Source: Snodgrassella gandavensis
Lineage (GTDB): Bacteria > Pseudomonadota > Gammaproteobacteria > Burkholderiales > Neisseriaceae
DNA: 64,000 bases
Reading direction: 5' to 3'
NCBI RefSeq assembly: GCF_914768025.1
Contig: NZ_CAJZCE010000005.1
Span: forward strand, 62,001-126,000
Each line of letters starts with the position of its first letter. Positions within the stretch are counted from its first letter, which is position 1. The notes under the pieces were generated by a model. It did no database searches. It was not told the DNA's origin and was given only the letters and a program-made list of their open reading frames with translations. A program made the translations under genes and the position numbers. Positions 19,497 to 26,597 of this stretch are shown piece after piece.

Positions 19497-19862
19497 TTAT
19501 ACTTTTGGCAAATATTCACGTGCTAACCAGCGAATCTGCATCTGTGCATCTGGTAGTAATTGTTGTAATTCGGCTACCGCTGTTTCAACCAGTAACCGCC
19601 CGCACATGAAAATATCAATGGCAGCATAGTGGTGTTCCGGCCATGTATGAATGCTGATATGTGATTCCGCCAGTAACAGTACACCAGTTACGCCACCGCT
19701 GCCGCCAAAGGTATGAAAATGGCTGGTCAAAATATGCGCCTGCGCCACCTGTGCCACCTGAAGTAATACCTTTTCAATAGCAATAGCATCCTGCAACCAG
19801 CTACTATTCAGTTGATATACATCTAGCAGACAATGTTGTCCTATAGCATGATTAAGCTGCAT
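19497..19862 (-). CDS. speD: S-adenosylmethionine decarboxylase proenzyme (class 1B, SpeD)
   Basis: A 121-residue AdoMet decarboxylase of the short bacterial/archaeal class. The self-cleavage site is in AESHISIHTWPEH: cleavage between Glu66 and Ser67 makes the pyruvoyl group on the new N-terminal Ser. Downstream Cys87 in DIFMCGR is the conserved proton donor region. The product, decarboxylated AdoMet, supplies the aminopropyl group used by aminopropyltransferases. Its ATG overlaps the TAA of the DUF4178 gene by one base (TAATG), so the two are translationally coupled. It is the last gene of a four-gene unit with DUF350, SPFH and DUF4178 proteins; its partner SpeE-like gene is in the divergent unit. 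Confidence 0.93.
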   Translation of the reverse strand: MQLNHAIGQHCLLDVYQLNSSWLQDAIAIEKVLLQVAQVAQAHILTSHFHTFGGSGGVTGVLLLAESHISIHTWPEHHYAAIDIFMCGRLLVETAVAELQQLLPDAQMQIRWLAREYLPKV

Positions 19863-21715
19863 TATTTATGCCACCGACCGCCGCTACCATAATAGCCGCC
19901 ATGTGAAGAATTTACTGAGTTTGATTGATTATTAAATACAGCATAATTGCACCAAGTAAATATGATGACAATCAGGGCTGCTAAATAAAGGTTATATTTT
20001 TTGGCACTATCTGTAGATTCAAATATACCCCATTCCCGATAAGGAATTTTTACAAGCAATCCGTAAGTGATAAAATGAAATATTAATGGCGTGATGCCAA
20101 AATCATTATTAGCCAGCCCTCCTACAAATATCATAAAAAATATCGGAAAATTCAAAACAATAAATAAGGCCATCCAGAAGCTGGCAGTACGAACATCAAT
20201 GTCGGGCTTCATGACAGTTTGCAAACGCCATTTTCTGATATTGCCTATAGTGAAATCTTTTGCCTTGATGCTTTGATGTTCGCGGACAATTTTAACGGCC
20301 TTATCAGCTGACAGTGGTTTTGCCTTGATGCTGATATTTTTATTACCCTGAAACCATGCGGCTACCAATGAGGCCGGAATACTGCTGACAACCGACCACG
20401 ACTGTTCATTAGGGGTTAGCGTTGTGGATAATTTACGCTGTTCACAGCCATAATCGACGTAATACATACTGTCGCCCGGTGCTACCTGCCAATAAAAAGC
20501 ACCAGCAGCATAGAGAACCTGAGCAGCATAATCATAAAGAAAAGGAATTTCGTCCTTTCTAAAATCAATTGGCTCTAATGGCCTGTTTAAGGTAGGCCAG
20601 TCATCGAGTGTTGAAGCCAGTGCCCATTGATTGTTTTCCAGCTCCAGCAGCCATAAAAAACCTTTTTTTGGGGAATAGAGCAGATATTCCGTCCAGCCAA
20701 GCGTTTCTGCTTCAGTTTCCTCATGCTCGGCTACCTGAATATATAAAGGTACGTCCTGCATGACTTTATTAACAGGTACTTCATACAGCACCATCGCGCC
20801 CAGTACCCACCAGCTTTCATTGCCAATCCGCGCTCTGCTGCCGATTTTAATGGTTAGGTGGCGCTCCTGGTGCTGGCGCATTTCACTAGTTGAATGCAGC
20901 TGGGCTGTTTCTTCCCCCATGTCCAGCTGGCTACGGCAATACTGGCACACAACATAATCAGCAACGCCACTTACCCAGCGGACTTCACCACCACAATTGG
21001 GGCATTTACCTCTTTTGGCGCTGCCCTTAACATGTCCGGCACGGGTGCGAATTTGCTCGGGAGTACGGGTATTTTGCAAACGCAGTGATTCTAATGCTAT
21101 ACCCTTACCGGCAAATACCTGTGGCTGAACCTTCCCGTCTGAATAATCCAGCGTGATAAAAGATGCACCATTGCGGCAATCGGCTACCTGAGCAGTTTCA
21201 GACTGAGGTAAGGGTATAGGCAACTCCCCCTCGGCCGCATACTGGCCACGCTGGATATTCCGGATATCTGCAACGGCATAACGGCGTTCTTTGTATTCGA
21301 AAAAGGTATTACCAATTTTCAGGCTGCTGAATTCAGGCAAGGCACGAAGATCAGACAGTGCTGGTTGCAGACGAGTGAAAACAAAGCGGTCGTTGGCTTC
21401 GGAAAGCCACGCACTGCTACCATCATGCATCAGCGCATGCCACTCATTCCACGATCCGGCATCGTAATTAACCTGCATGCGCCCGATCAGAGTAAATGGT
21501 TTGCCCTGCCACACACCGGTGGTACCGATTTGCAGTGGCGACAAATCATTTAAAACCGCAGAATGGCGGCCAGACTGAACCAATTTATTCTGATTAATTA
21601 ATAAAACAGAATGACAATAACCACAAACAGCAGTTACCGCGGTGGCTGAATGAATGCCGATTTCAGCCCCGCAACTGGGACAGTTACTATGCAGTAGATA
21701 GGAAGAACTGTTCAT
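19862..21715 (-). CDS. DUF4178 protein with two zinc ribbons and C-terminal membrane helices
   Basis: A 617-residue protein of unknown biochemical function. Two zinc-ribbon pairs are clear: Cys12/Cys15 with Cys31/Cys34 (CPSCGAE ... CGYCHSV) and Cys238/Cys241 with Cys257/Cys260 (CPNCGGE ... CQYCRSQ). Each is followed by a DUF4178-type beta-rich segment (about 55-200 and 280-430), including YSPKKGFLWLLELENNQW. Two or three membrane helices lie near 515-590, and the C-terminus is Gly-rich with a terminal His-Lys. The protein probably sits at the inner membrane with its N-terminal part in the cytoplasm. It begins 8 bases after the SPFH gene stop and overlaps speD by one base. Confidence 0.85.
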   Translation of the reverse strand: MNSSSYLLHSNCPSCGAEIGIHSATAVTAVCGYCHSVLLINQNKLVQSGRHSAVLNDLSPLQIGTTGVWQGKPFTLIGRMQVNYDAGSWNEWHALMHDGSSAWLSEANDRFVFTRLQPALSDLRALPEFSSLKIGNTFFEYKERRYAVADIRNIQRGQYAAEGELPIPLPQSETAQVADCRNGASFITLDYSDGKVQPQVFAGKGIALESLRLQNTRTPEQIRTRAGHVKGSAKRGKCPNCGGEVRWVSGVADYVVCQYCRSQLDMGEETAQLHSTSEMRQHQERHLTIKIGSRARIGNESWWVLGAMVLYEVPVNKVMQDVPLYIQVAEHEETEAETLGWTEYLLYSPKKGFLWLLELENNQWALASTLDDWPTLNRPLEPIDFRKDEIPFLYDYAAQVLYAAGAFYWQVAPGDSMYYVDYGCEQRKLSTTLTPNEQSWSVVSSIPASLVAAWFQGNKNISIKAKPLSADKAVKIVREHQSIKAKDFTIGNIRKWRLQTVMKPDIDVRTASFWMALFIVLNFPIFFMIFVGGLANNDFGITPLIFHFITYGLLVKIPYREWGIFESTDSAKKYNLYLAALIVIIFTWCNYAVFNNQSNSVNSSHGGYYGSGGRWHK

Positions 21716-21723
21716 ACAGCTAA

Positions 21724-22767
21724 TTAACCAGTGATTTTTTTGATAATCTCAGCCTTGGCTGTATCGTAATCATTCTGGCTAATCAGGTTTTGCTCCAGTA
21801 GGGTTTTCAGTTGTGCCAGTCTGGCAGTCAGGTCTGTGGCAGCAGTTTCAGCACCACCAGCAGGTGCAGCCGGTGTGGCTGTGGCACCGGTAATACCTGA
21901 GGTCATGACATTGGCTATATTCATTCCTGCCGCCAGCCCAGCGCCGATACCGGCAACACCGCCCTCATTCTGGGCAGCCAATGGGATGGCCTGTGCAGTC
22001 TGATACTGAGTATAACGTGCCATATCGCCAACTATACCCATACCCATGCGTTCATCCAGACGCTGTTGCAAGCTTTCGGGCAGGGTAATACTTTCTACGG
22101 TAAAGTTTTCCAGCTCCAGCCCGATGGCGGCAAATGCCGGTTGCAGCAAAGTAGTCATCTGCTGTGACAACATTAGCTGATTGGCGGCCATATCCAGAAA
22201 AGGAATATCAGAACTACCAAAAGCACTGGCTAACTGGGTAACGGCCAGATTACGCAACTGCTCTTCCAGTGTTTCAGTGCGATATTCCTCACATACGCCG
22301 CTTACTTCGCGAAAAAACACCGCCGGTTGGGCAATACGGAAAGAATACATACCAAACGAGCGCACGGAAACGGCGCCAAAATCACTGTCGCGAATGGTAA
22401 CCGGCTGTGCTGTGCCCCAGCGTCTGGATAGCTGCTGGCGCATGTTGAAAAAGTACACATCGGATTTGAATGGCGACTGAAATAATTTACCCCAGTGTTT
22501 CAGGTTGGTGAGTAACGGCAGGTTCTGGGTATTCAGAGTAAACGTGCCGGTGCCAAACTGGTCAGCAATGGCTCCTTCATCCACAAACATGGCATTCTGG
22601 GATTCCCGTACTATCAGGGCAGCGCCATTCTGGATTTCCTGATCCTGTAACGGGAAACGCCACATTAATACCTCTGGGTCAGGATTTTCCCACTGGATAA
22701 CGTCAATAAATTGTTTCTTGATGAAGCCACCCAAACCATTACTACCAAAAATTGAATTCAGTACCAT
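21724..22767 (-). CDS. SPFH/band-7 domain protein with C-terminal SHOCT-like tail (YdjI-type)
   Basis: A 347-residue SPFH-family protein of the virion-core-protein/YdjI type. It begins with FIKKQFIDVIQWENPDPEVLMWRFP, characteristic of this branch, and the SPFH beta-sheet domain spans about residues 35-215. A Gly/Ala-rich linker (AGIGAGLAAGMNIA) follows, and the last 35 residues (ARLAQLKTLLEQNLISQNDY...) form a SHOCT-like short helical domain that usually mediates oligomer contacts. There is no signal peptide. Proteins of this type act as membrane scaffolds. It lies between the DUF350 and DUF4178 genes with short spacers, which fixes it in the same operon. Confidence 0.88.
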   Translation of the reverse strand: MVLNSIFGSNGLGGFIKKQFIDVIQWENPDPEVLMWRFPLQDQEIQNGAALIVRESQNAMFVDEGAIADQFGTGTFTLNTQNLPLLTNLKHWGKLFQSPFKSDVYFFNMRQQLSRRWGTAQPVTIRDSDFGAVSVRSFGMYSFRIAQPAVFFREVSGVCEEYRTETLEEQLRNLAVTQLASAFGSSDIPFLDMAANQLMLSQQMTTLLQPAFAAIGLELENFTVESITLPESLQQRLDERMGMGIVGDMARYTQYQTAQAIPLAAQNEGGVAGIGAGLAAGMNIANVMTSGITGATATPAAPAGGAETAATDLTARLAQLKTLLEQNLISQNDYDTAKAEIIKKITG

Positions 22768-22797
22768 TGTTCGTATCCAGATTTAAAAATTTGATTA

Positions 22798-23196
22798 TTA
22801 ACTTAATGCAGCAGCATTGAGAATGCCAATAGCTACAGACAGGCCAAAAAACAGAATGCCAACTGCGATATTATTGTTTGCCAGTTCCTGATTAGCTTTG
22901 GGAATAAGCAGGGTAGCAATAAAATACACCAGAATCTGCACAATCATGGCTGCCACGCCCCAGATAATGAAACTGATCAGGCTTACTGATTGCAGCATGC
23001 TGGAAATCAGGGTGATGCAAAAACCGATCATGGCACCACTAAGCGAAGTAGCACAGGCTATGTTCCCTTGCTTGATTAATTTTAGTTCGGCCATAGGGGT
23101 AATGCGCAGGTAGAAAACAATAAACCCAATGAGCAAAAGCAGGGCAACAGCGAAGTATTTTAAATACTGCAAGTACTGCCACAAGGTAATTGCCAT
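22798..23196 (-). CDS. DUF350 integral membrane protein
   Basis: A 132-residue protein with four predicted membrane helices (about 10-30, 45-65, 70-95 and 108-130), the size and layout of the DUF350 family. The first helix is preceded by WQYLQYLKYFAV, and conserved small residues (Gly, Ala) occur within the second. It is the first gene of the minus-strand unit; the SPFH gene starts 30 bases after its stop. The divergent SpeE-like gene starts 250 bases away. DUF350 proteins often accompany SPFH and polyamine genes, but their biochemical activity is not known to me. Confidence 0.85.
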   Translation of the reverse strand: MAITLWQYLQYLKYFAVALLLLIGFIVFYLRITPMAELKLIKQGNIACATSLSGAMIGFCITLISSMLQSVSLISFIIWGVAAMIVQILVYFIATLLIPKANQELANNNIAVGILFFGLSVAIGILNAAALS

Positions 23197-23446
23197 ATTT
23201 CATTTTCCTGATTATTTCTGCTCTTAAACATACCGTATAATAATAGTTTTGTATAGTATGTTTTTTACTTTAACCAGCAATAAATTAACAATTGAATCTG
23301 CACAGATTATCCTGTAGCCGGAGTAGCTTGGATTCAGGCTGTAATTAGGGGCTAGCAAGGCCGCTTTACAGTAACGGCAGGGCTTACTTGTGAAACTGGT
23401 ACAAATCACTGTACCTGCAATATTAGAAATCAATAAAGGATAAATT
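23197..23446. promoter_or_regulatory. Divergent promoter region between the DUF350 unit and the SpeE-like unit
   Basis: This 250-base gap lies between two gene sets that face away from each other and seem to serve one system, so it should hold both promoters. I see no clear -35/-10 pair. An AAAGGA ribosome site at 23436-23440 precedes the GTG start of the SpeE-like gene. Confidence 0.4.
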
Positions 23447-24955
23447 GTGAATCCTGCATTAATTGTGTCGGTGTTTGTGGTAGCCAGTTGCGGGCTGGCC
23501 TATGAGTTGATTATGGCGGCACTGGCTAGCTATCTGCTTGGGGATTCGATACTTCAGTTTTCGTCGATCATTGGTGTATATATGTTTGCCATGGGTATTG
23601 GCGCTCATCTGACTCGCTATATTCATGACAGAGATGCATTAAGCCGCTTTATTGATATTGAAATTCTGGTGGGCATTGTCGGCGGTATTTCTGCGCTGCT
23701 TTTATTTGTGCTGTTTGGTTTTTCCGCTGCTCCGTTTCGTTCGGTACTGTATGGGCTGGTGCTGATTATTGGCATCATCACCGGTATGGAGCTGCCGCTG
23801 GTGATGCGAGTGCTCAATTTGCGTGAGGTTGAGTTTAAGGAAGTAGTTAGCCGAGTACTCACCTTTGATTATCTGGGTGCGCTGGCTGTTTCGCTGCTGT
23901 TTCCGCTGATTCTGGCACCGAAGCTGGGCATGGCCAGAAGTGCTTTGCTGTTCGGGATTCTGAATACGGTTGTGGCGCTATTAACTGCACGCCTATTTAA
24001 GAAAGATTTGCGCCGTTATCGGCACTTGTGCCTGCGTGGCAATATAGTACTGCTTATTCTGCTGCTTTTTTTCTGTTACGCCAATCAGATTACCAACAAG
24101 GCTGAAGAGCATTATTTCGGTGACCCAGTGGTGTATAGCACGGCTTCTCCTTATCAGCGGCTGGTAATTACCAAGTGGCATAATGATACCCGCCTGTTTA
24201 TTAATGGTAATTTGCAGTTTTCTTCGGCGGATGAAGCACGCTATCACGAGGCACTGGTGTTACCAGCGATGGAGCAGAATCCAAAGGCTGCCAATATTCT
24301 GATACTGGGCGGCGGTGACGGGCTGGCGGCGCGGGAAGTGCTGAAATATTCACAGGTTAAACAGGTTACGCTGGTTGATCTGGATGCCAGCATGACCAAA
24401 GTATTCCGCACGTCGGCACAACTGCGCGAACTCAATCAGAATTCACTCAATCATCCGAAAATGCGCATTATCAATGCCGATGCTGCACAATGGCTGGAAC
24501 ATAATCAGCAAAAATTCGACGTAATTATTATCGATTTTCCTGACCCTGCCAATTTTTCTCTGGGTAAGCTGTATTCTGTACCGATGTACCGTATGGTAGC
24601 ACGACATTTAAATCCACATGGCAATATTGTGGTGCAATCCACTTCACCCTATTTTGCGCCTAACGCTTTCTGGTGCATTGTCACCACATTGGAAGCGGCC
24701 GGACTGAAAACCCTGCCTTATCATGTTTATGTTCCTTCCTTTGGTGAGTGGGGCTATGTGATGGCCAGTCAGGAGGGAGAGTTTCTAATTCCCAATGATT
24801 ATCGTGTACCAACCCGGTATCTGGATGCCAACAGTACACGCGAAATGTTTAATTTTCCGAAAGACATGCAGCGACGTACGGTTGAAGCCAATCATCTGAA
24901 TACGCAAAAGCTGGTGGAATACTTTGAAGCAGACTGGCGTGCAGTGATGCGCTAA
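23447..24955 (+). CDS. Membrane-embedded spermidine-synthase-like aminopropyltransferase
   Basis: A 502-residue protein with a membrane part (about 1-210; seven or so helices) and a spermidine-synthase-like domain (about 220-480). The AdoMet/dcAdoMet-binding motif GGGDGLAAREVLKY (288-301), Asp311 at the end of the next strand, NADA (343-346) and IIDFPDPAN (Asp363 and Asp366) fit an active aminopropyltransferase. The usual substrate-loop Gln and the Tyr-His pair are seen in QFSSADEARYHEAL. The start is GTG at 23447, with AAAGGA seven bases upstream. The membrane part suggests a membrane-linked amine or lipid acceptor rather than free putrescine; this is inference. The Tat-signal FAD gene starts 13 bases downstream. 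Confidence 0.87.
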   Translation: MNPALIVSVFVVASCGLAYELIMAALASYLLGDSILQFSSIIGVYMFAMGIGAHLTRYIHDRDALSRFIDIEILVGIVGGISALLLFVLFGFSAAPFRSVLYGLVLIIGIITGMELPLVMRVLNLREVEFKEVVSRVLTFDYLGALAVSLLFPLILAPKLGMARSALLFGILNTVVALLTARLFKKDLRRYRHLCLRGNIVLLILLLFFCYANQITNKAEEHYFGDPVVYSTASPYQRLVITKWHNDTRLFINGNLQFSSADEARYHEALVLPAMEQNPKAANILILGGGDGLAAREVLKYSQVKQVTLVDLDASMTKVFRTSAQLRELNQNSLNHPKMRIINADAAQWLEHNQQKFDVIIIDFPDPANFSLGKLYSVPMYRMVARHLNPHGNIVVQSTSPYFAPNAFWCIVTTLEAAGLKTLPYHVYVPSFGEWGYVMASQEGEFLIPNDYRVPTRYLDANSTREMFNFPKDMQRRTVEANHLNTQKLVEYFEADWRAVMR

Positions 24956-24968
24956 GGGAGTATTAAGG

Positions 24969-26597
24969 ATGAAAATCAGTCGCCGCCGCTTTCTCGGCCA
25001 TGCACTCGGTGTCAGCATGGTGGGATTAACCAGCTACGAGGCGTGGCGTTATTTTGTGCCCGGAAAACCGCCAATTAGTGTGGATTTTCCGGGCAAGGCG
25101 ATTGGCCATGCTATTCGTGATGCACAAGTGCAGCCGCCTGCAAATATCCCCACACGCTACGCCAATACGGTAATTATCGGCAGCGGAGCCGCTGCCTTAT
25201 CTGCCGCTTGGCAATTATCCAGACAGGGCATGCAGGACTATATCCTGCTTGATGGTGCGGAACGTAATGGCAATAATCGCGGCGAAAGTCAGTTTGGCGT
25301 GGATTACCCAACCGGCGCTCATTACCTGCCCCTGCCCTCGCCTGAGTCTGAACACATTCGTGAATTACTAGGCGATTTACAGCTTTACCAGCATGGTGTG
25401 TATGATGAGCGTGCCCTGCTGCAAGTGCCCAATGAGCGCTTATTTTATCAGCAGCACTGGCAGAATGAACTGCTGCCACGCCGTGATGCCGACAGTGAGC
25501 GCTTTTTTCGCTTTATCCATCAACTCAGCAATCAGAGCGGCGCCGATGGCAAACGCCTGTTTACTATTCCGCTGGATTTGTCCAGTACCGACAGCCACTG
25601 GCGCCGGCTGGAACAGATAACATTTGCACACTGGCTGCAACAGCAGGGTTATCATTCACCAACATTATTATGGTATCTGGATTATTGCTGCCGTGATGAT
25701 TACGGACAGGGTATCAGCCAAGTCTGTGCCTGGGCAGGTTTGCACTACTTCTGTGCACGCGGTAATGAACAAAATGAGCATGGCTCAGTGTTGACATGGC
25801 CACATGGTTTGCATGAGCTGTCGCAACGGATACGCACATTCTGCCGCCTGCAACCACTGGAGAGCTGGCCGGAAAGCAGCCAGCCATTTAAGCAACCATA
25901 TAGTATGAATGCCTTTGTGGCTTCGATTGAAGAACATGCACAGGGTGTGCGCCTGTTAGCCTGTACCGGACAGCAGAAATATTTCTGGCTTGAAGCGCGC
26001 CATGCCATCTGTGCCATGCCACTGTATATTGCTGCACATGTGGTTAAAAATATTCAACAGTATGGTTTTAAGCCCGAAAGCCATATGCCGCAGTATGCGC
26101 CGTGGATTGTGGCTAATTTCTTGTTACGCGGGATGCCACCAGAAAGCAGGGGCAGCAGGCTGGCATGGGACAATATTCTGTATCAGGGTGCGGGGCTGGG
26201 TTATGTAGTGGCCACTCATCAGCAAATCCGGCAAGGGCCACCGGCTTATACATCTTTTACGGCTTATACGGCACTGAATCAGGATACACCGGCCAATGTG
26301 CGCCGCTGGATGCTGTCTGCCTCTCCCGAGGAGATTTACCAGTGTGCCGCAGCGGAGCTGGAACAGATTTACGGAGTAGCCTTGCGCCAGCGCATACTAC
26401 AGGCACGTTTAAGTCTGCGCGGCCACGCCATGGCGGTACCGCAGCCGGGCTATCTGGCCAATCAGGGCTTACAGGCACTGCGTTCTTATACAGGGCGTTT
26501 ACAGTTTGCTCACAGTGATTTATCCGGTTATTCGATTTTTGAGGAAGCCTGCTACTGGGGCAAGCGTGCAGCAGTACAGATACTGGCACAACAATAA
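24969..26597 (+). CDS. Tat-signal FAD-dependent oxidoreductase (amine-oxidase-like)
   Basis: A 542-residue flavoprotein with an N-terminal twin-arginine signal (SRRRFLG, residues 4-10, followed by HALGVSMVGLTSY), so it should be exported folded. The dinucleotide-binding motif VIIGSGAAALSAAWQLSRQ starts near residue 68. A C-terminal FAD-binding block, YTGRLQFAHSDLSGYSIFEEACYWG, is amine-oxidase-like. A few His and Cys residues (YLDYCCRDDYG) lie in the middle. It probably oxidises a substrate at the outer face of the inner membrane, possibly an aminopropylated compound made by its neighbour. The ribosome site AAGGA overlaps the upstream stop. A two-sided hairpin terminator lies 22 bases downstream. 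Confidence 0.82.
   Translation: MKISRRRFLGHALGVSMVGLTSYEAWRYFVPGKPPISVDFPGKAIGHAIRDAQVQPPANIPTRYANTVIIGSGAAALSAAWQLSRQGMQDYILLDGAERNGNNRGESQFGVDYPTGAHYLPLPSPESEHIRELLGDLQLYQHGVYDERALLQVPNERLFYQQHWQNELLPRRDADSERFFRFIHQLSNQSGADGKRLFTIPLDLSSTDSHWRRLEQITFAHWLQQQGYHSPTLLWYLDYCCRDDYGQGISQVCAWAGLHYFCARGNEQNEHGSVLTWPHGLHELSQRIRTFCRLQPLESWPESSQPFKQPYSMNAFVASIEEHAQGVRLLACTGQQKYFWLEARHAICAMPLYIAAHVVKNIQQYGFKPESHMPQYAPWIVANFLLRGMPPESRGSRLAWDNILYQGAGLGYVVATHQQIRQGPPAYTSFTAYTALNQDTPANVRRWMLSASPEEIYQCAAAELEQIYGVALRQRILQARLSLRGHAMAVPQPGYLANQGLQALRSYTGRLQFAHSDLSGYSIFEEACYWGKRAAVQILAQQ

What the first reader, a model, noticed from the sequence alone, without database searches (positions are those of the whole stretch)
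19497..26597. Divergent polyamine-membrane gene block: SpeD, membrane SpeE-like, SPFH, DUF350, DUF4178 and a Tat-exported FAD oxidase
Two facing-away units link an AdoMet decarboxylase to an aminopropyltransferase carrying its own seven-helix membrane part, with three membrane-scaffold or unknown-family proteins and an exported flavoprotein. Shared overlaps (TAATG between DUF4178 and speD; 13 bases between SpeE-like and FAD) show tight coupling. Ordinary spermidine synthesis needs only speD and a soluble speE. The membrane-bound enzyme and the exported amine-oxidase-like protein suggest that aminopropyl groups are placed on a membrane acceptor, possibly a lipid or an exported peptide, and then oxidised outside. 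The families are known to occur near each other; the chemistry is not known to me.
Basis: partly seen in the sequence, partly recalled or inferred. Interest (0 to 1): 0.7.

Follow-up and report, generated by a model that had tools for sequence, protein, structure and literature searches.

The report
Envelope aminopropyl-transfer gene block
A bee-gut bacterium carries a gene block that seems to attach small amine groups to something in its cell envelope instead of making the usual polyamine spermidine, and sequence evidence hints that this chemistry happens on the outer face of the inner membrane.

Summary
All six genes are real, but the claimed 13-base overlap of the SpeE-like and FAD genes is a 13-base gap. 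The genome is Snodgrassella-like. The block is a variant of a published neighbourhood (Ravi 2024, PMC11237479); a non-putrescine acceptor was proposed by Li 2019 (recalled). AdoMet decarboxylase is in 41 of 44 genomes with the fused enzyme against 68 of 354 without. The own genome has one speD, here, and no ornithine or arginine decarboxylase was found, but potA is present.

New: the transferase domain is probably extracytoplasmic. AlphaFold gives seven membrane helices; loop charges put the domain outside in 40 of 40 and then 12 of 12 sequences. Its cysteine content is 13/11,654 against 66/5,197 in soluble SpeE, but Bacteroidota show this only weakly. The FAD partner has a twin-arginine start in 13 of 13 aligned homologues.

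Best reading: cytosolic dcAdoMet passes the 7TM domain, is used on an envelope amine, and the exported FAD enzyme acts on the product. Acceptor and chemistry are unproven.

The parts
19497..19862 (-). speD, class 1b AdoMet decarboxylase (121 aa), the only AdoMet_dc match in the genome
   Evidence: PF02675 107.7 bits, TIGR03330 119.1 bits; one hit in G000
19862..21715 (-). DUF4178 protein (617 aa), two DUF4178 stretches, CxxC pairs like zinc ribbons, hydrophobic C-terminal part; stop overlaps speD start by one base (TAATG)
   Evidence: PF13785 77.8 bits, 2 stretches; zinc-ribbon models below cut-off; sequence
21724..22767 (-). Band_7_1 SPFH protein with weak SHOCT tail (347 aa)
   Evidence: PF13421 244.6 bits; SHOCT 19.0 bits, below cut-off 27
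22798..23196 (-). DUF350 membrane protein (132 aa)
   Evidence: PF03994 114.7 bits
23197..23446 (.). divergent intergenic region; one sigma-70-like match at 23285-23313 on +, no more than chance
   Evidence: 1 found, mean 0.8 in shuffles
23447..24124 (+). 7TM membrane part of the SpeE-like protein (residues 1-226) with conserved intramembrane E20, E72, E115, D141, N173
   Evidence: AlphaFold helices 3-31, 34-58, 61-92, 97-125, 142-160, 162-183, 191-224; conservation in 68 sequences
24125..24955 (+). aminopropyltransferase domain of spermidine-synthase fold (residues 227-502), predicted on the periplasmic side
   Evidence: PF01564 118.9 bits; Foldseek 1uir_B E 5.4e-16; loop charges and Cys content
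24969..26597 (+). FAD protein of the amine-oxidase fold family (542 aa) with twin-arginine start
   Evidence: PF01593 46.0 bits, NAD_binding_8 33.1 bits; SRRRFL at residues 4-9

Best explanation
The block encodes an envelope aminopropyl-transfer module. Step 1 (well supported): SpeD makes decarboxylated AdoMet (dcAdoMet) in the cytosol. Step 2 (supported by sequence): the 7TM-SpeE protein is the aminopropyltransferase that uses it, on an acceptor other than putrescine. Step 3 (predicted here): its transferase domain lies on the periplasmic face, and the 7TM domain, with invariant acidic residues inside the membrane, lets the dicationic dcAdoMet reach it. Step 4 (inferred): the acceptor is an amine of the envelope (lipid head group, lipoprotein, or a polyamine present outside). 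Step 5 (inferred from gene coupling): the Tat-exported FAD enzyme, probably membrane-tethered in many relatives, oxidises the product or a related amine. Step 6 (inferred): Band_7_1, DUF350 and DUF4178 form the membrane scaffold or regulator, in the place that PspA plus CesT/Tir has in related operons.
For: Dependence on dcAdoMet: AdoMetDC (PF02675 or PF01536) in 41 of 44 genomes with the fused enzyme versus 68 of 354 without (Fisher p 9e-23, not corrected for relatedness). Not spermidine from own putrescine: the own genome has one speD, no OKR_DC match, and one Orn_Arg_deC_N match, which is LysA (533 bits). Site kept: positions aligned with E. coli SpeE D158, D161, Y63 and H64 68 of 68 each, D88 64 D + 4 E; changed: E. 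coli Y227 is F, M or L in 68 of 68. Topology: K+R in loops 2+4+6 (about 49 residues) exceed those in loops 1+3+5 plus the stretch after TM7 (about 51 residues) in 40 of 40 sequences under 80% identical, mean 9.0 vs 3.2, and in 12 of 12 Bacteroidota fetched afterwards as a test (one is L014 again). Cys 13/11,654 in the domain vs 66/5,197 in 20 soluble SpeE and 86/8,849 in the membrane part of the same proteins. Intramembrane E115 and D141 68 of 68, N173 67, E20 65, E72 63. Exported partner: twin Arg in 13 of 13 aligned homologues, lipobox-like Cys in 9 of 13. FAD gene on the strand of the 7TM-SpeE gene in 19 of 19 loci; profile matches within 136 bases or overlapping in 16 of 19.
Against: No transporter of dcAdoMet to the periplasm is known to me. 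Cys depletion is not clear in Bacteroidota (18/3,379 vs 17/2,541 in their own membrane part, p 0.5). Cys poverty is not specific: PspA (0.03%) and the RHH protein (0.14%), taken as cytosolic, are also poor, and the exported FAD family is not (1.31%). My simple helix finder miscounted two E. coli proteins known from recall to have 12 helices (8 and 10) and gives six for this protein at thresholds 1.0-1.4 (by merging or missing the third and fourth); the count of seven rests on one AlphaFold model of five (mean pLDDT 81; the others 65-74; residues 131-150 about 51) and on the family hydropathy profile. potA is present (412.9 bits, cut-off 355.6), so imported putrescine could be the acceptor. Three of 44 genomes (G169, 71% complete; G037; G057) show no AdoMetDC match. 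The FAD model failed (pLDDT 38).
Confidence: 0.5

Rival explanations
1. Same chemistry but inside: the transferase domain faces the cytosol and aminopropylates an inner-leaflet lipid or a membrane peptide, much as MprF makes aminoacyl lipids with one domain and translocates them with another (PMC8131360, abstract start seen in the listing).
For: dcAdoMet is made by a SpeD without an evident export signal; Band_7_1 and DUF4178 partners look cytosolic (inference); the helix count is a prediction.
Against: Would need N-out, against the loop charges of 51 distinct sequences (40 of 40 and 12 of 12, one shared), or an even number of helices, against the AlphaFold model; Cys depletion of the domain in the first set.
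Confidence: 0.25
2. Ordinary spermidine synthesis: the 7TM-SpeE makes spermidine from imported putrescine, and the membrane part is only an anchor or importer.
For: The dcAdoMet-binding and catalytic residues are kept; potA is present in the genome; NCBIfam names the family polyamine aminopropyltransferase.
Against: No putrescine pathway found in the own genome (pyruvoyl arginine decarboxylases not searched); acceptor-side Tyr changed in 68 of 68; conserved coupling to membrane-scaffold families and exported proteins; Li 2019 reported failure to complement an E. coli speE deletion (recalled abstract).
Confidence: 0.15
3. The SpeE-like domain is a sensor: it binds dcAdoMet, MTA or polyamine and signals membrane stress through Band_7 or PspA, without catalysis.
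For: Coupling to PspA/CesT or Band_7 in relatives; Ravi 2024 suggests that polyamine concentration may be monitored (passage seen).
Against: Both catalytic aspartates invariant in 68 of 68, more than binding alone would seem to need; a flavoenzyme is coupled in 19 of 60 loci.
Confidence: 0.08

Closest known systems
7TM-spermidine-synthase / DUF350 / DUF4178 / CesT-PspA operon (Ravi et al. 2024, PMC11237479; section 19 read in full, other passages by search)
   Same: 7TM-fused SpeE, DUF350, DUF4178; membrane-scaffold partner; linked to polyamine genes
   Different: Here Band_7_1 stands in place of PspA-CesT, no lipoprotein gene is in the block, and speD and a Tat FAD protein are added. Ravi reports a band-7/2TM/SHOCT variant with AdoMetDC and polyamine oxidase, but as a variant of the ATP-grasp group.
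AdoMetDC with membrane-SpdSyn fusion (Li et al. 2019, Biochem J 476:2579; paper not held, abstract recalled)
   Same: speD class 1b in genomes with a membrane-SpdSyn fusion and DUF350; proposed acceptor is not putrescine
   Different: As far as I recall the abstract, topology and an exported FAD partner are not treated; the full paper was not seen
Soluble spermidine synthase SpeE (E. coli K-12; T. thermophilus 1uir)
   Same: Fold and catalytic residues
   Different: Membrane domain; E. coli Y227 to F/M/L and DCTDP (E. coli) to DFPDP (window) on the acceptor side; Cys-poor; predicted outside
Fused MFS/spermidine synthase (NF037959)
   Same: N-terminal helices similar; domain also Cys-poor, 1 in 2,400 residues over 8 comparators
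   Different: Longer, with more predicted helices; this protein scores 42.2 bits, barely over the cut-off of 40, against 675.7 for NF002956
Spermidine dehydrogenase SpdH / flavin amine oxidases
   Same: FAD-binding part; a profile of 13 homologues matches SpdH (7d9j, E 1.6e-12)
   Different: First match is 2b9w, deposited as putative aminooxidase (E 4.2e-13); best stretches cover mainly the FAD-binding part; substrate site not established

Membership tests
NF002956 (PRK03612) membrane-fused polyamine aminopropyltransferase | score over curated cut-off 472 bits | tested here: met
   675.7 bits
NF002956 (PRK03612) membrane-fused polyamine aminopropyltransferase | aminopropyl transfer to a polyamine | not testable with these tools
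   catalytic residues kept, acceptor unknown
Class 1b AdoMet decarboxylase | TIGR03330 over cut-off 75.65 bits | tested here: met
   119.1 bits
Ravi 2024 7TM-SpeE / CesT-PspA operon | CesT/Tir-PspA dyad present | tested here: not met
   no match in the 64 kb window to PspA or CesT profiles made from relatives; Band_7_1 instead
Ravi 2024 7TM-SpeE / CesT-PspA operon | 7TM-SpeE, DUF350 and DUF4178 together | tested here: met
Canonical SpeD-SpeE spermidine pathway | soluble SpeE with a putrescine source | tested here: inconclusive
   no ornithine or arginine decarboxylase of the two PLP families found; the other SpeE-like ORF (L091, PRK04457, 372 bits) has GGGSF for GGGDG and DGFDG for DxxDP; but potA is present and pyruvoyl decarboxylases were not searched
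Flavin polyamine oxidase | NCBIfam equivalog match | tested here: not met
   no NCBIfam model over its cut-off; Pfam Amino_oxidase 46 bits
Tat substrate | conserved twin-arginine N-terminus before a hydrophobic stretch | tested here: met
   13 of 13 homologues aligned, of 26 found

The most novel reading that the evidence does not exclude
The membrane-fused SpeE family (and perhaps the larger MFS-SpdSyn family) is an extracytoplasmic aminopropyltransferase: its 7TM domain conducts dcAdoMet out of the cytosol to a periplasmic transferase domain, which modifies an envelope amine, and an exported membrane-tethered flavoenzyme processes the product. This would be AdoMet-type group transfer outside the cytosol.
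Probability: 0.5. Interest if true: 0.85.

Novelty: new variant of a known kind. Interest (0 to 1): 0.6.

Why it matters
The fused SpeE enzyme is widespread (over its cut-off in 44 of 398 Pseudomonadota and 12 of 198 Bacteroidota genomes, own and centre genome included) and its acceptor is an open question. If its transferase domain is outside, assays with cytosolic acceptors looked in the wrong compartment, and the search narrows to envelope amines. It would also imply a route for decarboxylated AdoMet across the membrane. The topology is directly testable with standard reporter fusions.

Tried and rejected
Rejected: the 13-base overlap claim (it is a gap). Promoter and terminator scans gave no more than chance. 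FAD structure model (mean pLDDT 38) discarded. Whole-model Foldseek: the 50 rows shown of 1,383 are spermidine-synthase-fold entries, so nothing was learnt about the membrane part. The crude hydropathy helix counter failed on GalP and NupG and is not used as proof; applied to 11 fused MFS-SpdSyn comparators it gave 11 to 18 helices, so a C-out reading of that family is only suggestive (L126_4: 13 helices before the domain with loop charges that alternate except for a short last loop). Papers: I saw only search listings (25 of 661 listed; 7 of 7; 12 of 919), and passages of PMC11107197 and PMC10407285; none of these showed an extracytoplasmic aminopropyltransferase. The library is open-access only, so this is not proof of absence from print. 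One search (15 of 120 listed) showed no Snodgrassella transposon paper. The 7TM-speE DNA has no match in the E. coli genomes.

Selection to keep in mind: the 20 soluble SpeE comparators were picked by me from the sub-cut-off rows, not at random. Loop borders were set from the AlphaFold helices and the family profile, used and kept for the Bacteroidota set. The first set of 56 sequences (window, L004-L014, L047-L090; two of them from G342) was reduced to 40 under 80% identity; it includes one Bacteroidota sequence (L014), which recurs as L145 in the second set, so 11 of those 12 are new. Of 26 FAD homologues found (22, L148-L151) I aligned 13; left out were close Snodgrassella/Wohlfahrtiimonas copies, four with badly placed or cut ends (L051, L052, L054, L090), and L149. 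Distances run between ends of profile matches; overlaps of 200-970 bases there (L051, L052, L054, L055) come from frames that are too long, not from real gene overlap. In one search the 60 loci are not independent, several are cut by contig ends, and PspA (15) is a lower bound: a divergent PspA-like cluster in L081, L084, L088, L089 and in L155-L157 was not reached by the profile; none of these loci has the FAD gene.
Full report
WHAT IS THERE. The window lies in a 2.5 Mb genome in 45 contigs. Its SpeE-like protein is 86-99% identical to that of six Snodgrassella records, so it is taken as Snodgrassella (Neisseriaceae, Pseudomonadota). Six ORFs fill 19497-26597. On the minus strand, in order of transcription: DUF350 (132 aa), Band_7_1/SPFH (347 aa), DUF4178 (617 aa), speD (121 aa). 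On the plus strand: a SpeE-like protein with an N-terminal membrane part (502 aa) and a FAD protein with a twin-arginine start (542 aa). Families were confirmed against Pfam and NCBIfam.

WHAT IS IN PRINT. Ravi et al. 2024 (PMC11237479; [quoted passage not shown] 2019. Li 2019 is not held; from recall, its abstract reports that the membrane-SpdSyn fusion does not complement an E. coli speE deletion and proposes another acceptor. So neither the neighbourhood nor the 'other acceptor' idea is new.

CO-OCCURRENCE. In 398 Pseudomonadota genomes the fused enzyme (NF002956 over cut-off) is in 44. AdoMet decarboxylase of class 1 (PF02675) is in 33 of these 44 and class 2 (PF01536) in 8 of the other 11, so 41 of 44; the exceptions are G169 (71% complete), G037 and G057. 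Of the 398, 100 have PF02675 (one below its cut-off) and 9 others PF01536, which leaves 68 of 354 without the fused enzyme. Around 60 loci of the fused enzyme (tallied) two main layouts appear. The layout of the window (FAD protein, usually Band_7_1, large DUF4178, single or half DUF350, often speD) has FAD in 19 loci. The other has tandem DUF350, a lipoprotein and PspA/CesT; PspA is recognised in 15 loci, a lower bound. FAD and PspA are never together (0 of 60; 4.75 expected if independent). The FAD gene is on the strand of the fused-enzyme gene in 19 of 19 loci; profile matches lie within 136 bases or overlap in 16 of 19; in L149 they are 312 bases apart and in L047 and L090 5 and 8 kb.

DOES THE GENOME MAKE SPERMIDINE? 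The own genome has one AdoMet_dc match, the one in this block, no OKR_DC match, and a single Orn_Arg_deC_N match, which is lysA (533 bits). The only other SpeE-like ORF over the Pfam cut-off (L091) matches PRK04457 at 372 bits (cut-off 304), named polyamine aminopropyltransferase, but reads GGGSF where SpeE has GGGDG and DGFDG where SpeE has DxxDP (sequence). Against this: potA is present over its cut-off, a PLP decarboxylase of unassigned substrate lies near lysA, and there is a marginal arginase-family match (19.8 bits, 23.8 with its neighbours in the frame; cut-off 22). Pyruvoyl-type arginine decarboxylases were not searched. A missing putrescine pathway is therefore likely but not proven, and import is possible.

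THE ENZYME. The C-terminal domain has the spermidine-synthase fold (AlphaFold mean pLDDT 81, pTM 0.71, eight sequences; Foldseek 1uir_B E 5.4e-16). Over 68 sequences (56 plus 12) the positions aligned with E. coli SpeE Y63, H64, D140, D158 and D161 are invariant and D88 is D in 64 and E in 4. Their roles are recalled from the family's structures. On the acceptor side E. coli Y227 is F in 63, M in 4 and L in 1, and E. coli T160 is P in 56 of 56. So it should bind dcAdoMet and transfer an aminopropyl group, but probably to something shaped unlike putrescine.

TOPOLOGY, THE NEW POINT. The best AlphaFold model has seven long helices before the domain, in agreement with the family hydropathy profile and with the 7TM of Ravi 2024. 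Positively charged residues sit in loops 2, 4 and 6 and not in loops 1, 3 and 5 or just after helix 7: in 40 of 40 sequences under 80% identity, mean 9.0 against 3.2 over similar lengths. By the positive-inside rule loops 2, 4 and 6 are cytosolic, the N-terminus is inside, and after seven helices the transferase domain is outside. I then fetched a second set, from Bacteroidota (phylum of Neolewinella antarctica; 12 of 198 genomes), and the pattern held in 12 of 12 (one of the 12 is the locus already seen as L014). A second test, cysteine content, also fits in the first set: 13 in 11,654 residues of the domain (40 sequences), against 66 in 5,197 in 20 soluble SpeE and 86 in 8,849 in the membrane part of the same proteins. 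Calibration: lipoprotein partner 0.13%, GlnE 0.92%, SpeD 1.92%, twelve E. coli proteins taken as cytosolic 1.40%, six taken as exported 0.93%; but PspA 0.03% and RHH 0.14% are poor though cytosolic, and the exported FAD family (1.31%) is not poor. In Bacteroidota the domain has 18 in 3,379, lower than soluble SpeE (p 7e-4) but not lower than its own membrane part (p 0.5). So the charge test is consistent throughout and the cysteine test supports it in the Pseudomonadota set only. My simple helix finder failed on two controls and gives six helices for this protein at low thresholds; the count of seven is the weakest link.

THE MEMBRANE DOMAIN. E115 and D141 are invariant in 68, N173 is kept in 67, E20 in 65 (Q in 3), E72 in 63 (Q in 5), R121 in 64. 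Acidic residues this conserved inside membrane helices suggest a binding site for a cation. dcAdoMet carries two positive charges. The economical reading is that this domain passes dcAdoMet to the outer domain; binding of an amine acceptor is the alternative. Neither is tested.

THE FAD PROTEIN. Thirteen aligned homologues (of 26 found) all start with a twin arginine before a hydrophobic stretch, and nine of 13 then have a lipobox-like cysteine, so many are probably Tat lipoproteins; the window's protein and L010, L055, L057 lack the cysteine. A profile of the 13 matches flavin amine oxidases, among them spermidine dehydrogenase, but the first match is another flavoenzyme, 2b9w, and the matches lie mostly over the FAD-binding part. 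That it oxidises an amine is likely by family; that it acts on the aminopropylated product is inferred from gene coupling only.

VERDICT. A real and conserved block, a variant of a published neighbourhood of unknown product. What is added here is a testable prediction, with two lines of sequence evidence of unequal strength, that the aminopropyl transfer takes place outside the cytosol. Estimates: non-putrescine acceptor 0.65, domain outside 0.65, FAD acts on the product 0.35.

Noticed in passing
L148:12245-13300, L149:12494-13600, L151:12247-13266: In three FAD-type Bacteroidota loci a ~350 aa hydrophobic protein with invariant His (H59, H114, H244, H338) follows the FAD gene; no usable Pfam match (best DUF1129 E 0.38 in one member) and no PDB match.
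   Followed up: partly
L154:7396-8559 (-), same layout in L153 and L014: A glutathionylspermidine-synthase-like ATP-grasp gene (PF03738, 255.8 bits in L154) lies beside 7TM-SpeE and SpeD (L153 and L014 by similarity cluster only).
   Followed up: partly
L125, L126, L127, L129, L130, L132, L133, L135: Spermidine-synthase domains of eight fused MFS-SpdSyn proteins are also nearly free of cysteine (1 in 2,400 residues), so an outside location may hold for that larger family.
   Followed up: partly
L104:575-1996 (own genome, near lysA): PLP-dependent decarboxylase of unassigned substrate (best NCBIfam hit PanP 127 bits, far below cut-off; DABA decarboxylase 110 bits).
   Followed up: no
L091:6606-7415 (own genome): PRK04457 'polyamine aminopropyltransferase' (372 bits) lacks the GGGDG and DxxDP motifs; its name may be wrong.
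   Followed up: no
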